Positions 30,368 through 42,126 of a DNA stretch of 57,674 nt are shown in pieces; positions within the stretch are counted from its first letter, which is position 1; every line of letters begins with the position of its first letter. Source of the DNA: an uncultured Paracoccus sp. (GTDB lineage: Bacteria; Pseudomonadota; Alphaproteobacteria; Rhodobacterales; Rhodobacteraceae); contig NZ_CALMYP010000006.1 of the NCBI RefSeq assembly GCF_937873615.1, forward strand, positions 1-57,674, written 5' to 3'. The notes beneath the pieces were generated by a model that ran no database searches, was not told the DNA's origin, and saw nothing but the letters and a program-made list of their open reading frames with translations. The translations under genes were made by a program, and so were the position numbers.

Positions 30368-33152
30368 ATGAGGTCGGGCAAGGTGAAGAAGAAGGTTTGC
30401 CTGGTTCTGGACGGACCTGAACCAGGAGATGACGGCCGCCTTGCATTGCTTGACGAATTTGACGGGCTGGCCGATCTGTGCGGCGCTTTCCATGTCGATA
30501 TCCTCATTGTCGGCTGGCCAAGCATTTCGAACGGCCTGAGACAGCGCATGACCGAGCCGCTCAGATCGCTTGGGGCAGCTATCCGCTTTGTCGACCCCTC
30601 GGATTATGCGGACATTCAGCCCGAGACCGCCCATCGCGGCAAGAGCCTCGCCATATTTCGCCATCTGTCAGAGGAGGGCGACTACGATATAGTTCACTTC
30701 CTTGGCCTGCCTTGGCTGGCTTTCTACACGCTCTGCGCCCGCAGTCAGAGCACGGCTTTCGTCGATAGCGTCATCGTGTTGCAACCGGACAGCCTGGATT
30801 CCTGGCGCTTTCGCGAGGGAGACGGGCTTCCCGTGGATGCGATGGACCTGATCCTTGAATTCATGGAACAAGGGGCCGTCGCCCGCGCCGACTATCTGGT
30901 CATGCCGAGCGTCTATTCGCTGGATTGGATGCGAGAAAATTGCTGGACCCTGCCGCCAGAGGAACGCTGCCGGGTTATCCTGCCGGCGGCTGCGCCAAGC
31001 GAAGCGGTATCCGGCAGGGTCGACAAGGTTGAAGAACTGATCTTCGTTACCTCCGAGACCGCGCCGAACGATTCCCGGGTGATGATCGGCGCGCTCAACC
31101 GTCTTGCCCCACGGCTGGTGGACGACGGGATCCGGGCGTCCCTGCTGACTCGCTTTCACACGGACGAGTTTTACCATTCCGGCACCGACCTGATCGAGGG
31201 CGCCGAGGGGTGGGATTTTCCGTTGGCGATCTTTCCAGCAGACCAAAAGGCGGCACTGAAGGCCCGGCTGTCTGCCGCGCCGAATGCCGTGATGATCCTG
31301 GCGGAAGAAAAGCCCTTCAGCGCGCGCGGTGTCGCGCCGGCTATCACGCATGGGGTCCCGGTCGTCACCTCCTGTCTGGGTGGCGCGAACGAAGTGATTG
31401 CATCGACCCAGCGGGCCGAGTTGACTTGCGAGATGACGGCGGAAGCTTTGGCCAAGCACCTGGCATCCGCCCTGGAAAACGGGCTGCCCAGACCCATCGT
31501 CAGCGAGGCGGCGCGGAACAGCCGGGCCATTCATTCGCTCTATGACGAGGCGACTGGCCGCTTTTCCCCACCCGCGTCAGCCAGCGTCGACCTTCCACTG
31601 GTGACGGTCTGCATCACCCATTACCAGCGTATCGGCAAGTTGCGAGAGGCGCTTCGATCCGTTCTGGCGCAGACCTATCCCCGGATCGAGATCATTGTCG
31701 TCGATGATGGTTCGCCAGATGCAGAGGTCCAGGCCGAGCTTGATCGGCTGGAACCGGAACTACACCGGCATGGCGGTAGGCTGATCCGGCGCGAAAACGG
31801 CTATCTCGGCGCTGCCCGCAATAGCGGCGCTGCAGCCGCGCGGGGTCTTTACGTCTGCTTTCTCGATGATGACGATCTGGCTCTGCCAGACATGGTTCAG
31901 ACACTGGTTACCGCTGCCCGTAGCACCGGCGCAGAGATCGTCAGCGGACTGCAAACACCGATGCCGAACAGCCGTCGCGACGAGGCCCTGCCCGATCCGT
32001 TGGCCTTTCCGGGGAAGGTGGAATTCTTCCCGCTTGGCGGTCCACTTGCGCTGACCCTGACGCATTATTGCCTGGCAAATGCATCCTCGCTGATCCTGTT
32101 AAGCGCCTTCCAAGAGATCGGCGGTTATACGGAACTTCGCGATGTCGGCGGAGAGGATCACGAATTTTATACACGCGCCCTACAGAACGGGATGCGGATC
32201 GAGATCAGCCCGCATCTCGCCTATCTGTATGAAACCGGCATTCCGAGCATGTGGGGAAAGCACTCGCATCGGCGACATATGGCGCGCGTTGCGACCAGTA
32301 TCGAGTTGGATCACCGGGCGCCGCAACTGCGCGACCTGTTGCTACTGACGGCCAGCGACCGCGCCCGGCAGTTAACTTCCAGTATTCGAAGATTGCAAAT
32401 GGTCAACAGCGCGCATGTCGACATTCTGCAACAGCTCCACGGCGCGAACGACCTGCCGGACCAGTTGCGGCATCTGAGCAATTATGCGCATCAGCTTGGT
32501 CGGGATGGGATTGCCCGCGCATATCATGCCAGTCTGACATCGCGGAAGAAGCAATCCGCGCCAGAGCACACGGTCCCAAAACCGGCTGCTGTCAGCCCGG
32601 GGGCCAAAGCTGCAGCCTCTCATCGGAATGCGCCCAGAGATGAGAATTTTCCGGAGCATCTGCAACGCCTTCTGGGTGATCTTGCTGCCGACGCCGATGC
32701 GCCAGTCTTCGTACAGGATGCCCGCCTGGGCGAGATCGGGGACATTGTTCGACGAGGCATGTCGCGATCGTCGTGCCTAAACCTGATGGCGGAGCTTGGC
32801 GGGTTTTCTGCGACCTTCCGGGACCGCCCCCTTTTCGCGGTAACCATGTTCGAGCTCGCGATGCGCGCCGAGGATTGGGTCGAGGCGAAGAAACTTGTCG
32901 ATTCGGCGGCAGCGATGGGTGAGACAGCCTATCTGGCGCTTTATCCGGATGTCGCAGGTGCCGTCGAACAGCGCCTTCAAGAGCGGCCTGCAGCACTACG
33001 CGACATGGGGCCGGAAAGAGGGCCGAGAGGGATTCGCGCTGGTGACGGCGTTGAGCACGGTTGCCACGTCAATCACTGGCCAGGACGTTCAACTGGACCG
33101 ACTGCACAAGACGCTGCGGCAGTTATCACGCGGTCGCCTGAGCAGCCAATAA
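30368..33152 (+). pseudogene. Fused GT4/GT2 glycosyltransferase, frameshifted near its C-terminus
   Basis: The main frame starts at ATG 30368 (MRSGKVKKKVCLVLDG). It encodes a GT-B region (to about residue 350, with EKPFSARGVAPAITHGVPVVTS), then a family 2 domain with PLVTVCITHYQRIGKLREAL, IVVDDGSPDAEV and CFLDDDD. Near 32971 the shared tail AYLALYPDVAGAVEQ breaks. The right continuation (AFKSGLQHYATWGRKEGREGF...) lies in the +1 frame and runs to 33152, while the original frame runs on as nonsense to 33172. One extra C or two missing bases explain it. Restored length is about 928 residues. The catalytic parts precede the break, so the product may still be active. The plus-strand frame extends upstream to 30197 inside the neighbouring gene; I reject that extension. 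Confidence 0.8.
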
Positions 33153-38370: not shown

Positions 38371-38519
38371 CTTGCGACCGCTTGTGCTGGGAGGCGGATG
38401 GAACGTGGGGATGCCGTGCGGCGGCGGTCCGAGCCTGGCCAATGATTGCTGCGGCCTTGACTTTGCACCTTCAACTACGGCTTCTTCTGGCGCACAGATC
38501 GAACAGATTGGCCTTCAAC
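38371..38519. other. Gap between the CoA-transferase remnant and the sulfatase
   Basis: No gene and no clear ribosome site were seen in these 149 bases. Confidence 0.3.
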
Positions 38520-38890
38520 GTGACTGACGCCCGCAAGAACATCATACTTTTCAGTTTCGATGACTGCATCGCTCCGAGGAAATATCGCACCGTATTCGGT
38601 GAACCGTTGTACACGCCGAACCTCGATCGCATCTGCGCGGAATCCACGTCGTTTCACGCCGCCTATTGCCAGGCGCCGATCTGCGGGCCGTCGCGCGCGA
38701 GTTTCATGTAGGGACGTACCCCCCATCAATCGGGCGTATTCGACAATAGCGAGGATATCTTCGCCCATGTTCCGGTCACGGAATTCTGGTCGCACAGCCT
38801 GAAGGATGCGGGTTATTTCTGTTCCTCGGGTGGCAAGGTGCATCACCGCTACAAGCCGGTGCGGCGGCGCTTTCACTATGCGCTTTATTC
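38520..38890 (+). pseudogene. N-terminal part of a sulfatase: in-frame TAG, then IS insertion
   Basis: The frame begins at GTG 38520 and encodes the N-terminus of an alkaline-phosphatase-fold sulfatase (KNIILFSFDDCIAP, PLYTPNLDRIC). The formylglycine signature is present: C55 in CGPSRASFM at residues 55-63. The next codon (38709-38711) is TAG where the family has Ser or Thr before GR; the frame resumes as GRTPHQSGVFDNSEDIFAHVP. The gene is then split at 38890 by the IS1595-family element. Joining across the element, with one target copy removed, restores the frame exactly (ALYSDEQKHF) for 434 residues. The sulfatase would have cut sulfate esters, perhaps on a polysaccharide. The TAG alone suffices to kill it. 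Confidence 0.88.
38883..38890. repeat. Left copy of the 8-bp target-site duplication of the IS
   Basis: CTTTATTC directly precedes the left inverted repeat, and the same octamer follows the right end at 41185-41192. Eight bases is the size expected of IS1595-family elements. Confidence 0.95.
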
Positions 38891-38954
38891 GGCGATTGTA
38901 TATTTGACAAACCCATGCCTCGCAGGTGATTATTGCCCTGCGTGACAGGCCGGA

Positions 38955-39104
38955 TCAGTCGGACGATTTCTTGTCGTCCGGCTTCTGCTTCACGATCTGC
39001 TTCAACCGTTCCTCAAACCGCTCGTCGTCGTCGTCCGTCTCTAGCTGGCGGGCGGCTTCCTTGAACTTGTCCAATTGACTCTTTTTCGCGTCAGGTGTTC
39101 CCAT
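38955..39104 (-). CDS. IS passenger: 49-residue charged mini-protein
   Basis: ATG at 39104 to TGA at 38955-38957 encodes 49 residues. The protein is strongly charged: it has a helical, lysine- and glutamate-rich N-terminus (KKSQLDKFKEAARQLE), a run of four aspartates, then RFEERLKQIVKQKPDDKK. It looks like a short coiled coil or helix pair and has no enzyme motif. The gene is divergent to the DUF3800 gene; the two start codons lie only a few bases apart, so the 5' ends overlap on opposite strands. I do not recognise the family. The consistent charge pattern and the shared start region suggest a real gene, perhaps an antidote or adaptor of the DUF3800 protein. Confidence 0.6.
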   Translation of the reverse strand: MGTPDAKKSQLDKFKEAARQLETDDDDERFEERLKQIVKQKPDDKKSSD

Positions 39105-39109
39105 GTGTC

Positions 39110-39961
39110 ATGCCCGGTATTTCAGAACCATACGAGTATGTTCTCTACATTGATGAAGCCGGGGATGACGGCCTCAAACGAGTTAAGCCTATAGATGAAA
39201 GCGGTGGAAGTGAATGGCTGTGCATCGGCGGCCTGTTGATCCGCTCCCAATATGAAGCCGATACAGTTAAGTGGGTCAAAGACATTCGCAAAGATATCAA
39301 TGCCGTCCAAGGCCCGGCCCTGCATTATCGCGACCTGTCCCCAACGAAGCGACGCCGAGCCTGCGAGTTGCTGGCTGAGCATCCGTGTAGGTTTTTTGCT
39401 GTCGTGTCTAACAAGAAGAATATGCGCGGCCACAACAATATTCGCGCATCCAGGCGCGGGGGCAAGCAGTGGTACTACAATTATTGCGTGCGACTACTGA
39501 TGGAGCGCGTCACAGACTTCTGCTTGCGGGATAGCACGAAACGATACAAAGAACCGCGCTTTGTGAAGGTAATATTCAGCGCGCGAGGTGGACACTCTTA
39601 CGGCCAGACCAAAGCTTATTGGGAGCTTCTAAAGGCGCAGGCAGCAGGTGGCTCGACCTTCCTAAGCAAACGCGAGATTGCCCATCAGGTATTGAAATAT
39701 GCGTTGGTTGATTATGTACCGCATTACAGCGTTGCGGGATTGCAACTGGCCGATGTCATCGCGAGTTCTGTCTACCAAGCTGCCGACGCCTTGGGTCCGA
39801 AATGGGCGCTGGAGCCTGCTATAGCGCTTGAGCCAAGAATGAGCAGAGAGGCGGGTGTGATCGCAGATTACGGTATCGTACTTCAGCCATCACCGCCATG
39901 GAAAGCCGAGCTGACCGACAATCAAAAACTGATCTTCAAGCATTATGGATACCGCTTCTAG
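39110..39961 (+). CDS. IS passenger: DUF3800-domain protein
   Basis: This protein of about 283 residues has the DUF3800 hallmarks: EYVLYIDEAGDDG at the N-terminus with the D-E pair, LCIGGLLI, and the C-terminal GLQLADVIASSVYQA. Families with this domain are predicted to have an RNase H-like fold and a nuclease or nucleic-acid role; they often sit in mobile or defence-related regions. The start is taken as ATG 39110 (MPGISEPYEY); GTG at 39095 is an alternative. It is transcribed opposite to the transposase and converges with the 62-residue gene, the stops overlapping by two bases of CTAG. It is unlikely to be needed for transposition and is best seen as cargo. Confidence 0.85.
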   Translation: MPGISEPYEYVLYIDEAGDDGLKRVKPIDESGGSEWLCIGGLLIRSQYEADTVKWVKDIRKDINAVQGPALHYRDLSPTKRRRACELLAEHPCRFFAVVSNKKNMRGHNNIRASRRGGKQWYYNYCVRLLMERVTDFCLRDSTKRYKEPRFVKVIFSARGGHSYGQTKAYWELLKAQAAGGSTFLSKREIAHQVLKYALVDYVPHYSVAGLQLADVIASSVYQAADALGPKWALEPAIALEPRMSREAGVIADYGIVLQPSPPWKAELTDNQKLIFKHYGYRF

Positions 39962-40146
39962 GGCGCGTGGGCCCCGGCCCCAAGTTGCATCAAGTCTGTT
40001 AGGCTGCCATCCATCTGGACAACCGTACCTGATACCGCCAGAGCCGCTTGCTGCGCTCCGACATGGGGTGATCCGGCGTATCCCACGCCATGAATCGTCG
40101 CATATATGGTGGAATCTGTCACTAGAAATATTTGATTCCGCGACAT
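39958..40146 (-). CDS. IS passenger: 62-residue mini-protein
   Basis: ATG at 40146 follows GGGGAAAGGACTAG, a good ribosome site, and lies 16 bp after the transposase stop, so it is probably in the transposase operon. The 62 residues start MSRNQIFLVTDSTIYATIHG and run to GAGAHAP. They are mildly hydrophobic, without a membrane helix. I cannot name a family. The gene converges with the DUF3800 gene with overlapping stop codons. Such compact packing and the good ribosome site support a real gene. Confidence 0.6.
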   Translation of the reverse strand: MSRNQIFLVTDSTIYATIHGVGYAGSPHVGAQQAALAVSGTVVQMDGSLTDLMQLGAGAHAP

Positions 40147-40162
40147 CTAGTCCTTTCCCCGC

Positions 40163-41116
40163 TTATGAGATCCAGTTAGCCCGACCATAGGTGAGGCGCT
40201 TTCCGACCATCCCGCGAAGCGCAATTTCGGCGCGCTCCATATCCTCAACCCCATTGTCTGCGCGGCTGTTATAGCGAAACTCGAACTCTGCCGCGTAACG
40301 GTGCAGGTGCTTCTTGCCGCAATGCTGGTAGACGCCCTTCATGCCGCGCTTGAAGATGCTGAAATAGCCCTCAATCGTGTTGGTGTGGACGACGCCACGA
40401 CCATACTCGCCCTTGCTGTGCGTGGTGAAATCGTGGCCAGCAAAGTCAGCCGCGATGCCGGTGTATTGCTTCGCTTCGTCGGTGTAGACGGTCGCCTCTT
40501 TGGCGATGTTCTCGCGCAGGATCGGAAGAAGCGTTGCCTTGGTCACATCGTCCACGACGATAGACTTTGCGCGGCCCGTGGTGCGATCCACGAGGGACAA
40601 CATGGCGTTCTTGTGGGCATAGCCGCGTGCGCCCTTGGCTTTCTTGTGCTTGGTGCCGATGAAGGTTTCGTCAACTTCGACCACGCCACCGCCGTTGCCG
40701 AAATTCACGGCGCCGTCGCCGCGCATGGCTTCGCGGATGCGGTGAGACATGAACCATGCGCTCTTGTGGGTGATTTCGAGAACGCGGTGAAGCTGGTGGC
40801 TGCTGATGCCCTTCTTGCTGGACACCATCAGGTGAATGGCTTGCAGCCACTTGTGCAGCGGAATGTGGCTTTCTTCAAAGATCGTGCCAATGCGCACGGT
40901 GAACTGCTTGCGGCACTCGGCGCATTTCTTGAGGCCATGACGTTCAACGCCTTCCGGGTTCTTCTTGGACGGCTTGGAGCGAACGCCGGTCAGCACATAG
41001 ACCTTGCCGCAGTTGCCGCAATGCGGGCAGACCGGACCATCGGTCCAGATGATGCTTTCGACGTGCGCGAAGGCTGCGGCTTCGTCGTGCATGTAAGGCC
41101 TGGACAGAACGGACAT
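40163..41116 (-). CDS. IS1595-family (ISXO2-like) transposase
   Basis: This 317-residue transposase has a zinc ribbon near the N-terminus with CPHCGNCGK and CAEC. The helix-turn-helix-like KGISSHQLHRVLEITHKSAWFMSHRIR follows. Catalytic motifs are VEVDETFIGTKHKK (first Asp), VYTDEAKQY (second Asp) and NTIEGYFSIFKRGMKGVYQH (third residue region). GAGGAAG precedes the ATG. The frame is intact, so it should be functional. It recognises the 25-bp ends and makes the 8-bp duplication seen at both sides. Confidence 0.95.
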   Translation of the reverse strand: MSVLSRPYMHDEAAAFAHVESIIWTDGPVCPHCGNCGKVYVLTGVRSKPSKKNPEGVERHGLKKCAECRKQFTVRIGTIFEESHIPLHKWLQAIHLMVSSKKGISSHQLHRVLEITHKSAWFMSHRIREAMRGDGAVNFGNGGGVVEVDETFIGTKHKKAKGARGYAHKNAMLSLVDRTTGRAKSIVVDDVTKATLLPILRENIAKEATVYTDEAKQYTGIAADFAGHDFTTHSKGEYGRGVVHTNTIEGYFSIFKRGMKGVYQHCGKKHLHRYAAEFEFRYNSRADNGVEDMERAEIALRGMVGKRLTYGRANWIS

Positions 41117-41184
41117 GGCGGCTTCCTCAACTCTATGACCTCAATATAGGATCATGAGTTGGGTTTGTCAAATATACAATCGCC

Positions 41185-41192
41185 CTTTATTC
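41185..41192. repeat. Right copy of the 8-bp target-site duplication
   Basis: CTTTATTC follows the right inverted repeat and matches 38883-38890 exactly. Confidence 0.95.
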
Positions 41193-42126
41193 CGACGAGC
41201 AGAAGCACTTCAAAGATGACATGCATATGCCGCCAGATGTCGAGAAGAAGAAATATGGCGGCAATCGCGGCGGTTGGGGCACCACGAACGAGAAGGACGA
41301 CGATATCTATTATGACCATCAGTCGGCCGATTCCGCGATCGAGTTCCTGCAGAACCGCGCGCCCGGCGGACCTTTCTATCGCGAGGTGGGCTTCTATAGT
41401 CCCCACGGTCCGCATTATACACCCGCGCGATTCAAGGAAATGTATAACCAGAAGGCCTTCAGGATGCCCGAGGAATGGGCCGGGGGCTTCGACACCAATG
41501 CTTACGCGGACGAGATTTTCCTGCAGAATATCGACCCCGCGAAGAAACAATGGTGGCAACAGAGCGTACGCAACTATTATTCCGCACTGAGCCATGGCGA
41601 CTATCATCTCGGCAGGGTGTGGGATGCGTTGAAGGCTTCGCCACATGCCGAGAACACGATTTTCATCATTGTCGCGGATCACGGTTTTCATCTCGGCAAC
41701 CTGAACCGTTACAAGAAGACGACGCAGTGGGAGCAGGTGGCGGGCGTGCCGCTGATCGTCCACGACCCCAGCCACCCCGAGGCGCGTGTCGTGCAGGATC
41801 CGGTTGCCATGCTGGATCTCGGTCCAACGGTGCAGGATTATTGCGACATCGCCCCGGCGCCGGGCACGATGGGTAAATCGCTGCGACCGCTCGTCGAAGG
41901 CGGCAGCGATCCCGACCGGGCCATTGCGACCTTCTATTTCGACAATGTCTCCATCCGGAAGGGCGATTTCCGGTTGATCCGCTATGTCGACGGCAGCACG
42001 CAGCTTTACGATCTGCGTACAGATTACTGGCAACTGCACGACCTTGGCCCCGACCATGAACAGCATGAACCGATGCTTCAGGCGCTGATCGAATGCAGCC
42101 GCGAATCCGGGCTGGAAATCGCCTGA
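41193..42126 (+). pseudogene. C-terminal part of the interrupted sulfatase
   Basis: This fragment continues the sulfatase frame from CTTTATTC. It carries the second metal-side and phosphatase-fold features: FYREVGFYSPHGPHYTPARF, the loop FIIVADHGFHLGNLNRYKKTTQWE (metal-binding DHG) and a C-terminal FYFDNVSIRKGDFRLIRYVDG. It looks like the iduronate-2-sulfatase group. It has no start of its own and cannot be made as an enzyme in the present arrangement. After excision of the IS it would still need the TAG at 38709 to be reverted or read through. Confidence 0.85.

What the first reader, a model, noticed from the sequence alone, without database searches (positions are those of the whole stretch)
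38891..41184. A recent, intact IS1595-family element carrying three cargo genes
The ends are perfect 25-bp inverted repeats and the 8-bp target duplication is exact (38883-38890 and 41185-41192). Besides the transposase it encodes a DUF3800 protein and two mini-proteins, packed with divergent starts at one end and overlapping stops at the other. IS elements with non-transposition cargo are uncommon and this set is unnamed to my knowledge. It may be a portable defence or addiction module that helps the element persist.
Basis: partly seen in the sequence, partly recalled or inferred. Interest (0 to 1): 0.75.

Follow-up and report, generated by a model that had tools for sequence, protein, structure and literature searches.

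The report
Jumping gene carrying nuclease–RNA pair
A small bacterial jumping gene carries, besides its own transposase, a nuclease-like gene paired with a structured RNA (misread at first as a tiny protein), a pair also seen in phages that may act as a toxin with its RNA restraint, though that function is untested.

Summary
The insertion is real: perfect 25-bp ends, an exact 8-bp target duplication, an intact IS1595 transposase, one copy in a Paracoccus genome. (1) The 49-aa protein belongs to the IS: relatives lie on the transposase strand in 40 of 64 complete elements, with differing cargo. (2) The DUF3800 protein is a predicted RNase HII-like nuclease under purifying selection. (3) The 62-aa ORF is very probably not a gene. 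Its place is a ~124-nt structured RNA ending 3 nt from the DUF3800 stop, convergent with it, with a promoter-like site and strong covariation. Models of it find the RNA behind DUF3800 in 33 of 48 DUF3800 loci and 33 of 50 viral-contig loci, and in 0 of 75 control loci (50 holding a complete IS1595 element). It grades into Rfam's DUF3800-VII RNA. The nearest sister element (transposase 93% identical) carries a PIN-domain cargo instead; others carry HEPN, NYN, Panacea or RelA/SpoT genes, though most sister cargo is unnamed. So this IS lineage has a cargo slot, at times filled by nuclease or toxin-like modules, here a DUF3800–RNA pair. Most likely function: an RNA-restrained nuclease (addiction or anti-phage). 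This is inferred, not shown.

The parts
38883..38890 (.). left copy of the 8-bp target duplication (CTTTATTC)
   Evidence: read directly
38891..38915 (+). left inverted repeat, 25 bp
   Evidence: the motif scan of the window finds only these two sites at 17 of 24 or better
38955..39104 (-). sp49: 49-aa gene belonging to the IS lineage, predicted helical hairpin
   Evidence: weak AlphaFold model of two helices, pLDDT 64.6; dN/dS 0.19-0.45 against three relatives
39110..39961 (+). DUF3800 gene (283 aa from ATG 39110; open frame from GTG 39095), predicted RNase HII-like nuclease
   Evidence: PF12686; AlphaFold pLDDT 88.7; Foldseek best hits RNase HII/HIII/H2; dN 0.071, dS 1.27 against L024, dS saturated against three others
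39965..40088 (-). structured non-coding RNA, about 124 nt, divergent relative of Rfam DUF3800-VII; replaces the proposed 62-aa ORF
40094..40122 (-). sigma-70-like promoter of the RNA: -35 GTGACA (40122-40117), 17-nt spacer, -10 GACGAT (40099-40094); predicted start near 40088
   Evidence: the window scores 8 of 12 at -31
40163..41116 (-). IS1595-family transposase, 317 aa, intact
41160..41184 (-). right inverted repeat, 25 bp
41185..41192 (.). right copy of the 8-bp target duplication (CTTTATTC)
   Evidence: read directly

Best explanation
Anatomy (shown by sequence analysis): an IS1595-family element made of (i) an IS backbone, i.e. inverted repeats, transposase and the lineage's own 49-aa protein, and (ii) a cargo slot that here holds a two-part module: a DUF3800 gene with a predicted RNase HII-like fold and, convergent with it, a structured RNA with a promoter-like site of its own. 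Mechanism (inferred): the RNA is made from its own promoter, folds into a closed multi-branched structure and binds the DUF3800 nuclease, keeping it inactive while transcription continues. Loss of the RNA (element loss, or a phage that shuts down host transcription or attacks the RNA) would free the nuclease to cleave RNA or RNA-DNA hybrids and stop the cell. The pair would thereby help its carrier (IS or prophage) to persist and may protect against other phages. Steps shown: existence, structure, conservation and linkage of RNA and protein; predicted fold; exchange of cargo within the IS lineage. Steps inferred: RNA–protein binding, inhibition, toxicity, trigger.
For: RNA is real: 31 pairs; on 28 matches 26 pairs show changes on both sides, 155 double-change cells against 44.4 +/- 5.4 shuffled, 94% of cells paired against at most 47% when slid (one of the 28 rows is an off-target match). 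On 33 viral-contig matches 207 cells against 64.7 +/- 6.2 (3 of the 33 are identical to genome loci that went into the model). RNA core identity to five relatives 79-90%; third codon positions of the adjacent gene 42-60% in the three relatives compared. Linked to DUF3800: 33 of 48 DUF3800 loci, each on the opposite strand within about 30 nt of the end of the DUF3800 match; 33 of 50 viral-contig loci; 0 of 75 control loci in 682 kb, of which 50 hold a complete element and none a DUF3800 relative at E 1e-3. Own promoter: 46 of 60 upstream regions score 8 of 12 or better against 4% of random sites (the 60 are not independent). Nuclease: Foldseek E 4.5e-5 to RNase HII, probability 1.00; invariant D20, E21, E137, D220. 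DUF3800 is described in print as an RNase H fold nuclease next to CRISPR effectors and as linked to putative ncRNAs (PMC10910872, PMC12669027, passages). Pair in an isolated phage directly after its S24-type repressor gene, and an S24/repressor-like gene within 900 nt upstream in 7 of 32 viral loci looked at. In 25 DUF3800 loci without this transposase no neighbour protein of 60 aa or more is shared by three or more loci, apart from frames overlapping DUF3800 itself, and sp49 is found in one of them, L047 (L048 has a chance-level match), so no protein antitoxin is apparent. Some sister cargo is toxin-like: PIN, PIN_10 + DUF433, HEPN, NYN, Panacea x2, RelA/SpoT. Precedent for an RNA that neutralises a phage-encoded toxin by direct binding: AbiF–RCd22 (PMC12373285, abstract).
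Against: No toxicity, binding or defence data. 15 of 48 DUF3800 loci give no hit; in L033 and L034, about 60% identical to the window's DUF3800, the RNA seems to be missing, which is awkward for an obligatory antitoxin. In one of nine close relatives (L030) the 62-aa frame is open. PADLOC gives no hit for DUF3800. The RNA is one copy, convergent and separately promoted, unlike known type III antitoxins. The folding energy of the window RNA alone is only mildly unusual (z -2.26). Foldseek TM-scores are only 0.37-0.51 for the five significant hits. The Pfam make-up of sister cargo was not compared with a genomic background, and 45 of the 60 cargo ORFs first scanned had no Pfam match above cut-off.
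Confidence: 0.42

Rival explanations
1. The RNA is a cofactor or guide that activates or aims the DUF3800 nuclease (an RNP effector) rather than an inhibitor.
For: DUF3800 proteins occur beside Cas12a2-type and VI-F CRISPR effectors (PMC10910872, PMC12669027 passages); the RNA is a single structured unit with very conserved internal blocks.
Against: Both ends are closed in the outer stem; no variable segment at either end that could act as a guide was seen in the 10-row alignments.
Confidence: 0.22
2. The RNA is a regulator of expression: a cis or antisense element for the DUF3800 mRNA 3' end or for transposase read-through, without binding DUF3800 protein.
For: It is convergent with DUF3800 and starts 74 nt past the transposase stop on the transposase strand.
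Against: It is conserved 3' of DUF3800 in loci where no transposase of this kind was found (L028, L029, L031, L035-L039 and others) and absent from all 75 control loci, 50 of which hold a complete IS1595 element. Structure, not complementarity to the coding region, is what is conserved.
Confidence: 0.15
3. The 49-aa protein is the antitoxin of DUF3800 (protein toxin-antitoxin pair with divergent starts).
For: Adjacent divergent genes in the window and in L025, L030, L032, L043, L045, L058.
Against: sp49 occurs with PIN, Panacea, RelA/SpoT and other cargo and in elements with no recognised other cargo (L078, L109, L130); of 25 DUF3800 loci without this transposase only L047 has a clear sp49. 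On the transposase tree it is a clade feature: 35 of 38 rows inside one clade (support 87/84), 1 of 19 outside.
Confidence: 0.06
4. Ordinary hitchhiking passenger: DUF3800–RNA does something for the host (RNA or R-loop processing) and was captured by chance.
For: DUF3800–RNA occurs outside the IS; sister cargo is diverse and mostly unnamed.
Against: Patchy distribution (RNA model in 3 of 101 genomes, with stricter filters) and 50 DUF3800 loci in viral contigs fit a selfish or defence gene better than housekeeping.
Confidence: 0.15

Closest known systems
Rfam RF02967, DUF3800-VII RNA (one of the DUF3800-associated RNA motifs; original report recalled as Weinberg et al. 2017, not held)
   Same: Same place and orientation (3' of DUF3800, opposite strand), same outer-stem and internal-stem architecture, shared core words. 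My models and RF02967 hit the same coordinates within a few bases in L052 (R1), and in L055, L056, L182, L183, L185-L188, L190, L194 and L204 (R2).
   Different: The window RNA is longer (124 nt against 90 model positions) and scores below Rfam's reach (no match at E 1 or better in 3 kb); here it sits inside an IS.
IS1595-family elements with passenger genes (tIS; MTnSag1 and tISCpe8 as cited in PMC5704250, passages)
   Same: IS1595 transposase, inverted ends of 25 bp, target duplication, non-transposition cargo.
   Different: Cargo is a nuclease–RNA pair; the lineage has its own conserved small protein and a slot with exchangeable genes, some toxin-like.
Toxin-antitoxin gene pairs in Tn3-family transposons (PMC7157771, abstract and section list)
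   Same: Transposon lineage carrying exchangeable TA-type modules; PIN and HEPN toxins appear in both.
   Different: Different transposase family; the presumed toxin's partner here is an RNA; a separate small IS-specific protein is present.
AbiF–RCd22 and type III toxin-antitoxin systems (PMC12373285, abstract and passages)
   Same: Protein with a structured ncRNA partner, found in prophages.
   Different: Predicted RNase HII-like fold, unlike the Cas13-related AbiF or ToxN; RNA convergent, single copy and with its own promoter-like site, not an upstream repeat array; neutralisation not shown.

Membership tests
IS1595 family | ISXO2-like DDE transposase | tested here: met
   PF12762 E 2.9e-35, NF033547 200 bits against cut-off 75
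IS1595 family | terminal inverted repeats and 8-bp target duplication (8 bp recalled) | tested here: met
   54 of 64 accepted elements, the window's included, have 7 or 8 of 8 matching flank bases (duplication was a bonus in choosing the ends)
DUF3800 (PF12686) | profile match above gathering score | tested here: met
   45 bits against 21
DUF3800 (PF12686) | RNase H fold with acidic active site | tested here: met
   predicted model only: pLDDT 88.7, Foldseek RNase HII E 4.5e-5; invariant D20 E21 E137 D220; activity not tested
Rfam DUF3800-VII RNA (RF02967) | score at or above the family's gathering threshold | tested here: not met
   no match in window 38500-41500 at E 1 or better; related through intermediate loci only
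Rfam DUF3800-VII RNA (RF02967) | location 3' of DUF3800 on the opposite strand (as seen in the Rfam hits here) | tested here: met
type III toxin-antitoxin system | antitoxin RNA repeats upstream of and co-transcribed with the toxin | tested here: not met
   single copy, convergent, own promoter-like site
type III toxin-antitoxin system | toxic protein neutralised by direct RNA binding | not testable with these tools
   needs experiment
protein (type II) toxin-antitoxin pair sp49–DUF3800 | conserved co-occurrence of the two genes | tested here: not met
known anti-phage defence system | match to a PADLOC profile | tested here: not met
   no PADLOC family for DUF3800, transposase or sp49; the one E 0.029 match was for the 62-aa ORF

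The most novel reading that the evidence does not exclude
DUF3800 plus its convergent RNA is a new type of RNA-restrained toxin/defence system (RNase HII-like nuclease held by a single structured RNA from its own promoter), spread by temperate phages and by an IS1595 lineage whose cargo slot exchanges toxin modules, with the 49-aa protein as the common helper that lets one IS carry many different toxins.
Probability: 0.28. Interest if true: 0.85.

Novelty: new variant of a known kind. Interest (0 to 1): 0.62.

Why it matters
DUF3800-associated RNAs are known as motifs in Rfam; as far as I saw, what they do is open. Here such a pair is found as a clean two-part module, with its own promoter-like site, on a self-contained mobile element of 2.3 kb and in an isolated phage. 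That makes a direct test possible: express DUF3800 with and without its RNA, then challenge with phage. It also shows how a small IS lineage can act as a shuttle for exchangeable cargo, nuclease and toxin-like modules among it, and it corrects a misreading of a structured RNA as a mini-protein.

Tried and rejected
62-aa protein: rejected, frame broken in eight of the nine closest relatives (open in L030) with nucleotides conserved, and the covariation is that of an RNA. RNA on the plus strand: weaker (consensus energy -27.5 against -37.6; z +0.32 against -2.26). sp49 as DUF3800 antitoxin: rejected by distribution. sp49 as a widespread host protein: it lies within 4 kb and on the same strand of a transposase in 18 of 23 places in 385 genomes (transposase at E 1e-30) and in 15 of 22 places in 325 genomes (transposase at E 1e-60; own genome and G312 in both). 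Of the 12 unlinked places 11 were fetched (weak G140 was not); 7 of the 11 have an IS end at 19 of 24 or better within 800 nt, against 5% of 400 random places. PADLOC: nothing. PDB sequence search with the DUF3800 profile: best E 0.09, not convincing. sp49 structure: low confidence. Literature: no paper on DUF3800 in IS1595 elements in the listings (open-access library only; listings seen, most papers not opened; Weinberg 2017 and the tISCpe8 paper are not held; Siguier 2009 seen only as a reference). Plasmid searches with DUF3800 and sp49 gave 2 and 1 records. Weak points of the controls: 25 of the 75 control loci hold no accepted element; DUF3800 loci were fetched by DUF3800 similarity, so the share of DUF3800 among elements is not a frequency; the search for shared neighbours saw only ORFs of 60 aa or more. 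In one search the stretch folded for L129 was the wrong one; the right one shows no unusual fold (z -0.38), nor does L096 (z +0.84).
Full report
1. The element. Window 38891-41184 has 25-bp perfect inverted repeats and identical 8-bp flanks CTTTATTC. It encodes an intact IS1595-family transposase and is the only copy in its 3.86-Mb genome. The insertion lies in a sulfatase gene: the part after the element matches PF00884 (E 1.9e-24), the part before it weakly (E 1.5e-4, below cut-off).

2. The IS lineage carries cargo as a rule. I looked by script for ends and target duplications around transposase relatives in the loci fetched by transposase, DUF3800 or sp49 similarity. This accepted 64 non-identical elements, the window's included, of 1.04 to 4.36 kb; 54 have 7 or 8 of 8 matching flank bases. 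The rule was a duplication of at least 7 of 8 or ends of at least 20 of 24, with the duplication as a bonus in choosing the ends. Three of the 64 were flagged doubtful (L096, L103, L108). 15 transposase matches without clear ends and 3 duplicates were dropped, as were the short search loci L002-L023 and matches lacking the protein's start. Of 60 cargo ORFs picked by hand for Pfam, 15 had a match above the curated cut-off. One is a nested transposase. The other 14 are PIN, PIN_10, NYN, HEPN, DUF3800 (3), SocA/Panacea (2), RelA_SpoT, DUF433, N6_N4 methylase with Mrr_cat, DUF1828 and KTSC. The other 45 had none. In a further call (112), 3 more DUF3800 and 1 more PIN protein passed the cut-off. 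I had no genomic background to compare with, so enrichment for toxin families is an impression, not a test.

3. Cargo is exchanged. On a tree of 57 of the 64 transposases (7 shorter than 250 aa left out) the window element (DUF3800) is sister, with support 100/100, to L066 from the same genus, whose cargo is a 286-aa protein plus a PIN-domain protein. Its transposase is 93% identical, its ends match at 22 of 24 and it has its own 8-bp duplication. DUF3800 and PIN labels (set by hand) each need 9 changes on the tree, no fewer than shuffled labels (means 7.6 and 7.5). In one genome (G542), two elements with nearly identical transposases carry DUF3800 (L134) and a Panacea-domain gene (L135).

4. 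The 49-aa protein (sp49) belongs to the IS. It is found in 40 of 64 elements, in all 40 on the transposase strand, behind the transposase gene or (L138) overlapping its end. On the tree it marks one clade of moderate support (87/84): 35 of 38 rows inside, 1 of 19 outside. It occurs with different kinds of cargo. Genome scans with its profile place it near a transposase in 18 of 23 and 15 of 22 places; 7 of 11 unlinked places fetched keep a lone IS end. Its role is unknown; a transposition or regulation helper is my guess.

5. The 62-aa ORF is an RNA. Aligned with nine relatives of the DUF3800 locus, the ~170 bases after the DUF3800 stop are strongly conserved, but the 62-aa frame is broken in eight of the nine; in L030 a frame of 69 codons stays open. 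On the minus strand the region folds into a closed structure: GCGTGGG at 40088 pairs with CCCACGC ending at 39965, around further stems and two hairpins. The minus strand is favoured over the plus strand in energy and through G-U pairs. RNA core identity is 79-90% to five relatives; third codon positions of the neighbouring gene are 42-60% identical in the three relatives compared.

6. The RNA goes with DUF3800, not with the IS. A covariance model of ten sequences (R1) searched over the window and 48 DUF3800 loci matched the window and 26 loci at E 1 or better; nine of these 26 were in the model. A second model from 26 sequences (R2), run on the loci not in it, added seven more: 33 of 48. All lie on the strand opposite DUF3800 within about 30 nt of the end of the DUF3800 match. 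The only other match is a chance-level one at window 30810 (E 0.21 and 0.68). In 75 control loci (682 kb; 50 with an accepted IS1595 element, none with a DUF3800 relative at E 1e-3) neither model matched at E 1. The 15 DUF3800 loci without a match are L033, L034, L045, L051, L053, L057, L059, L063, L064, L067, L068, L093, L096, L129 and L134; L057, L063 and L064 hold partial matches. L033 and L034 are close DUF3800 relatives that seem to lack the RNA (no unusual fold in L033, z +0.19; one long hairpin of another kind in L034). At the same place L045, L051, L059, L067, L068 and L093 have unusually stable folds (z -2.1 to -7.2), L096, L129 and L134 do not; L053, L057, L063 and L064 were not folded. 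In viral contigs, a search with the DUF3800 alignment gave 50 loci; R2 matched 33 of 50, all behind DUF3800 on the opposite strand, three identical to genome loci.

7. Covariation. On 28 R1 matches (one of them the off-target window match) 26 of 31 pairs show changes on both sides; 155 double-change cells against 44.4 +/- 5.4 in shuffles; 94.4% of cells paired against 34-47% when slid. On the 33 viral-contig matches (31 distinct): 26 of 31 pairs, 207 cells against 64.7 +/- 6.2. These alignments are fitted to the model, which favours it, and shared descent inflates cell counts.

8. Relation to Rfam. No Rfam family matches the window at E 1 or better. But DUF3800-VII (RF02967) matches L055 and L056, L052, 13 of 20 viral loci scanned and the phage locus L204 in the same place and orientation. 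My models hit the same coordinates within a few bases in L052 (R1) and in L055, L056, L182, L183, L185-L188, L190, L194 and L204 (R2). So the window RNA is a divergent relative of DUF3800-VII, not a curated member.

9. Promoter. 46 of 60 RNA loci have a sigma-70-like site scoring 8 of 12 or more with the -35 box near -31 from the model start, against 4% of random places; 23 of 60 score 9 or more against 0.5% (related loci are not independent). The window scores 8. The predicted start falls at the first base of the outer stem.

10. The protein. Alignment of 35 DUF3800 proteins (35 of 43 from the window, the others partial or left out) shows invariant D20, E21, E137 and D220, with a DEAG motif that recalls RNase HII (motif recalled). 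AlphaFold gives pLDDT 88.7; the five significant Foldseek hits are RNase HII, RNase HIII and archaeal RNase H2, with TM-scores of 0.37-0.51. dN/dS against L024 is about 0.06.

11. Phages. An isolated phage, Rhizobium phage RHph_TM3_3_3, has DUF3800 directly after a gene annotated as S24 family peptidase/repressor, with the RNA convergent behind it. Among 32 viral loci looked at, a repressor-like gene lies within 900 nt upstream in seven: L165, L176, L184 and L198 by similarity to the phage repressor, L173, L175, L191 (and L176 again) by Pfam, with ten proteins scanned. An integrase gene precedes it in L187. Such places are typical of genes expressed in lysogens (recalled).

12. Reading. The parts fit an RNA-restrained nuclease. 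No protein antitoxin is apparent: in 25 DUF3800 loci without this transposase no neighbour of 60 aa or more is shared by three or more loci, apart from frames overlapping DUF3800 itself, and only one of them (L047) has a clear sp49. AbiF–RCd22 gives a working precedent for a phage-encoded toxin bound and neutralised by its ncRNA (PMC12373285, abstract and passages). Whether the DUF3800 RNA restrains or activates the protein cannot be told from sequence.

13. Novelty. IS1595 elements with passenger genes and DUF3800-associated RNAs are both known kinds. New, as far as the listings of five library searches show, are their combination, the divergent RNA, the IS-specific small protein and the exchange of cargo, some of it toxin-like, in this lineage.

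Noticed in passing
38382-38711 and 41221-42126: The target gene is a sulfatase; besides the insertion its first part also ends in a stop codon (38709-38711), so it was perhaps already inactive.
   Followed up: partly
L067:5815-5951 and L068:5278-5420: Elements with a different, 235-aa DUF3800 have a stable multi-branched fold in the same place (z -2.1 to -3.9, both strands alike), not matched by the RNA models; possibly another DUF3800 RNA class.
   Followed up: partly
L051:4862-5000: Two strong hairpins and a terminator-like stem after a DUF3800 gene (z -7.2), not matched by the models.
   Followed up: no
L204 (MN988468.1): Isolated Rhizobium phage with repressor, DUF3800 and DUF3800-VII RNA in a row.
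   Followed up: partly
L087, L138, L100, L098, L135: Sister elements carry a DNA methylase/Mrr fusion, a RelA/SpoT-domain protein, a HEPN protein and Panacea-domain proteins.
   Followed up: partly
L071:4120-4560: sp49 appears fused to a longer C-terminal part (146 aa).
   Followed up: no
L069:5818-5940 (G008): A relic of the same element's left end (85% identical over 123 bp) in another genome of the genus, next to transposase-like sequence of another kind.
   Followed up: no
L030, 3' of DUF3800: The one close relative in which a 69-codon frame stays open across the RNA; its match to the 62-aa ORF is 46% over 54 residues.
   Followed up: partly
window 30810-30894: Chance-level match of the RNA models (E 0.21 and 0.68) far from any DUF3800 found.
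   Followed up: no
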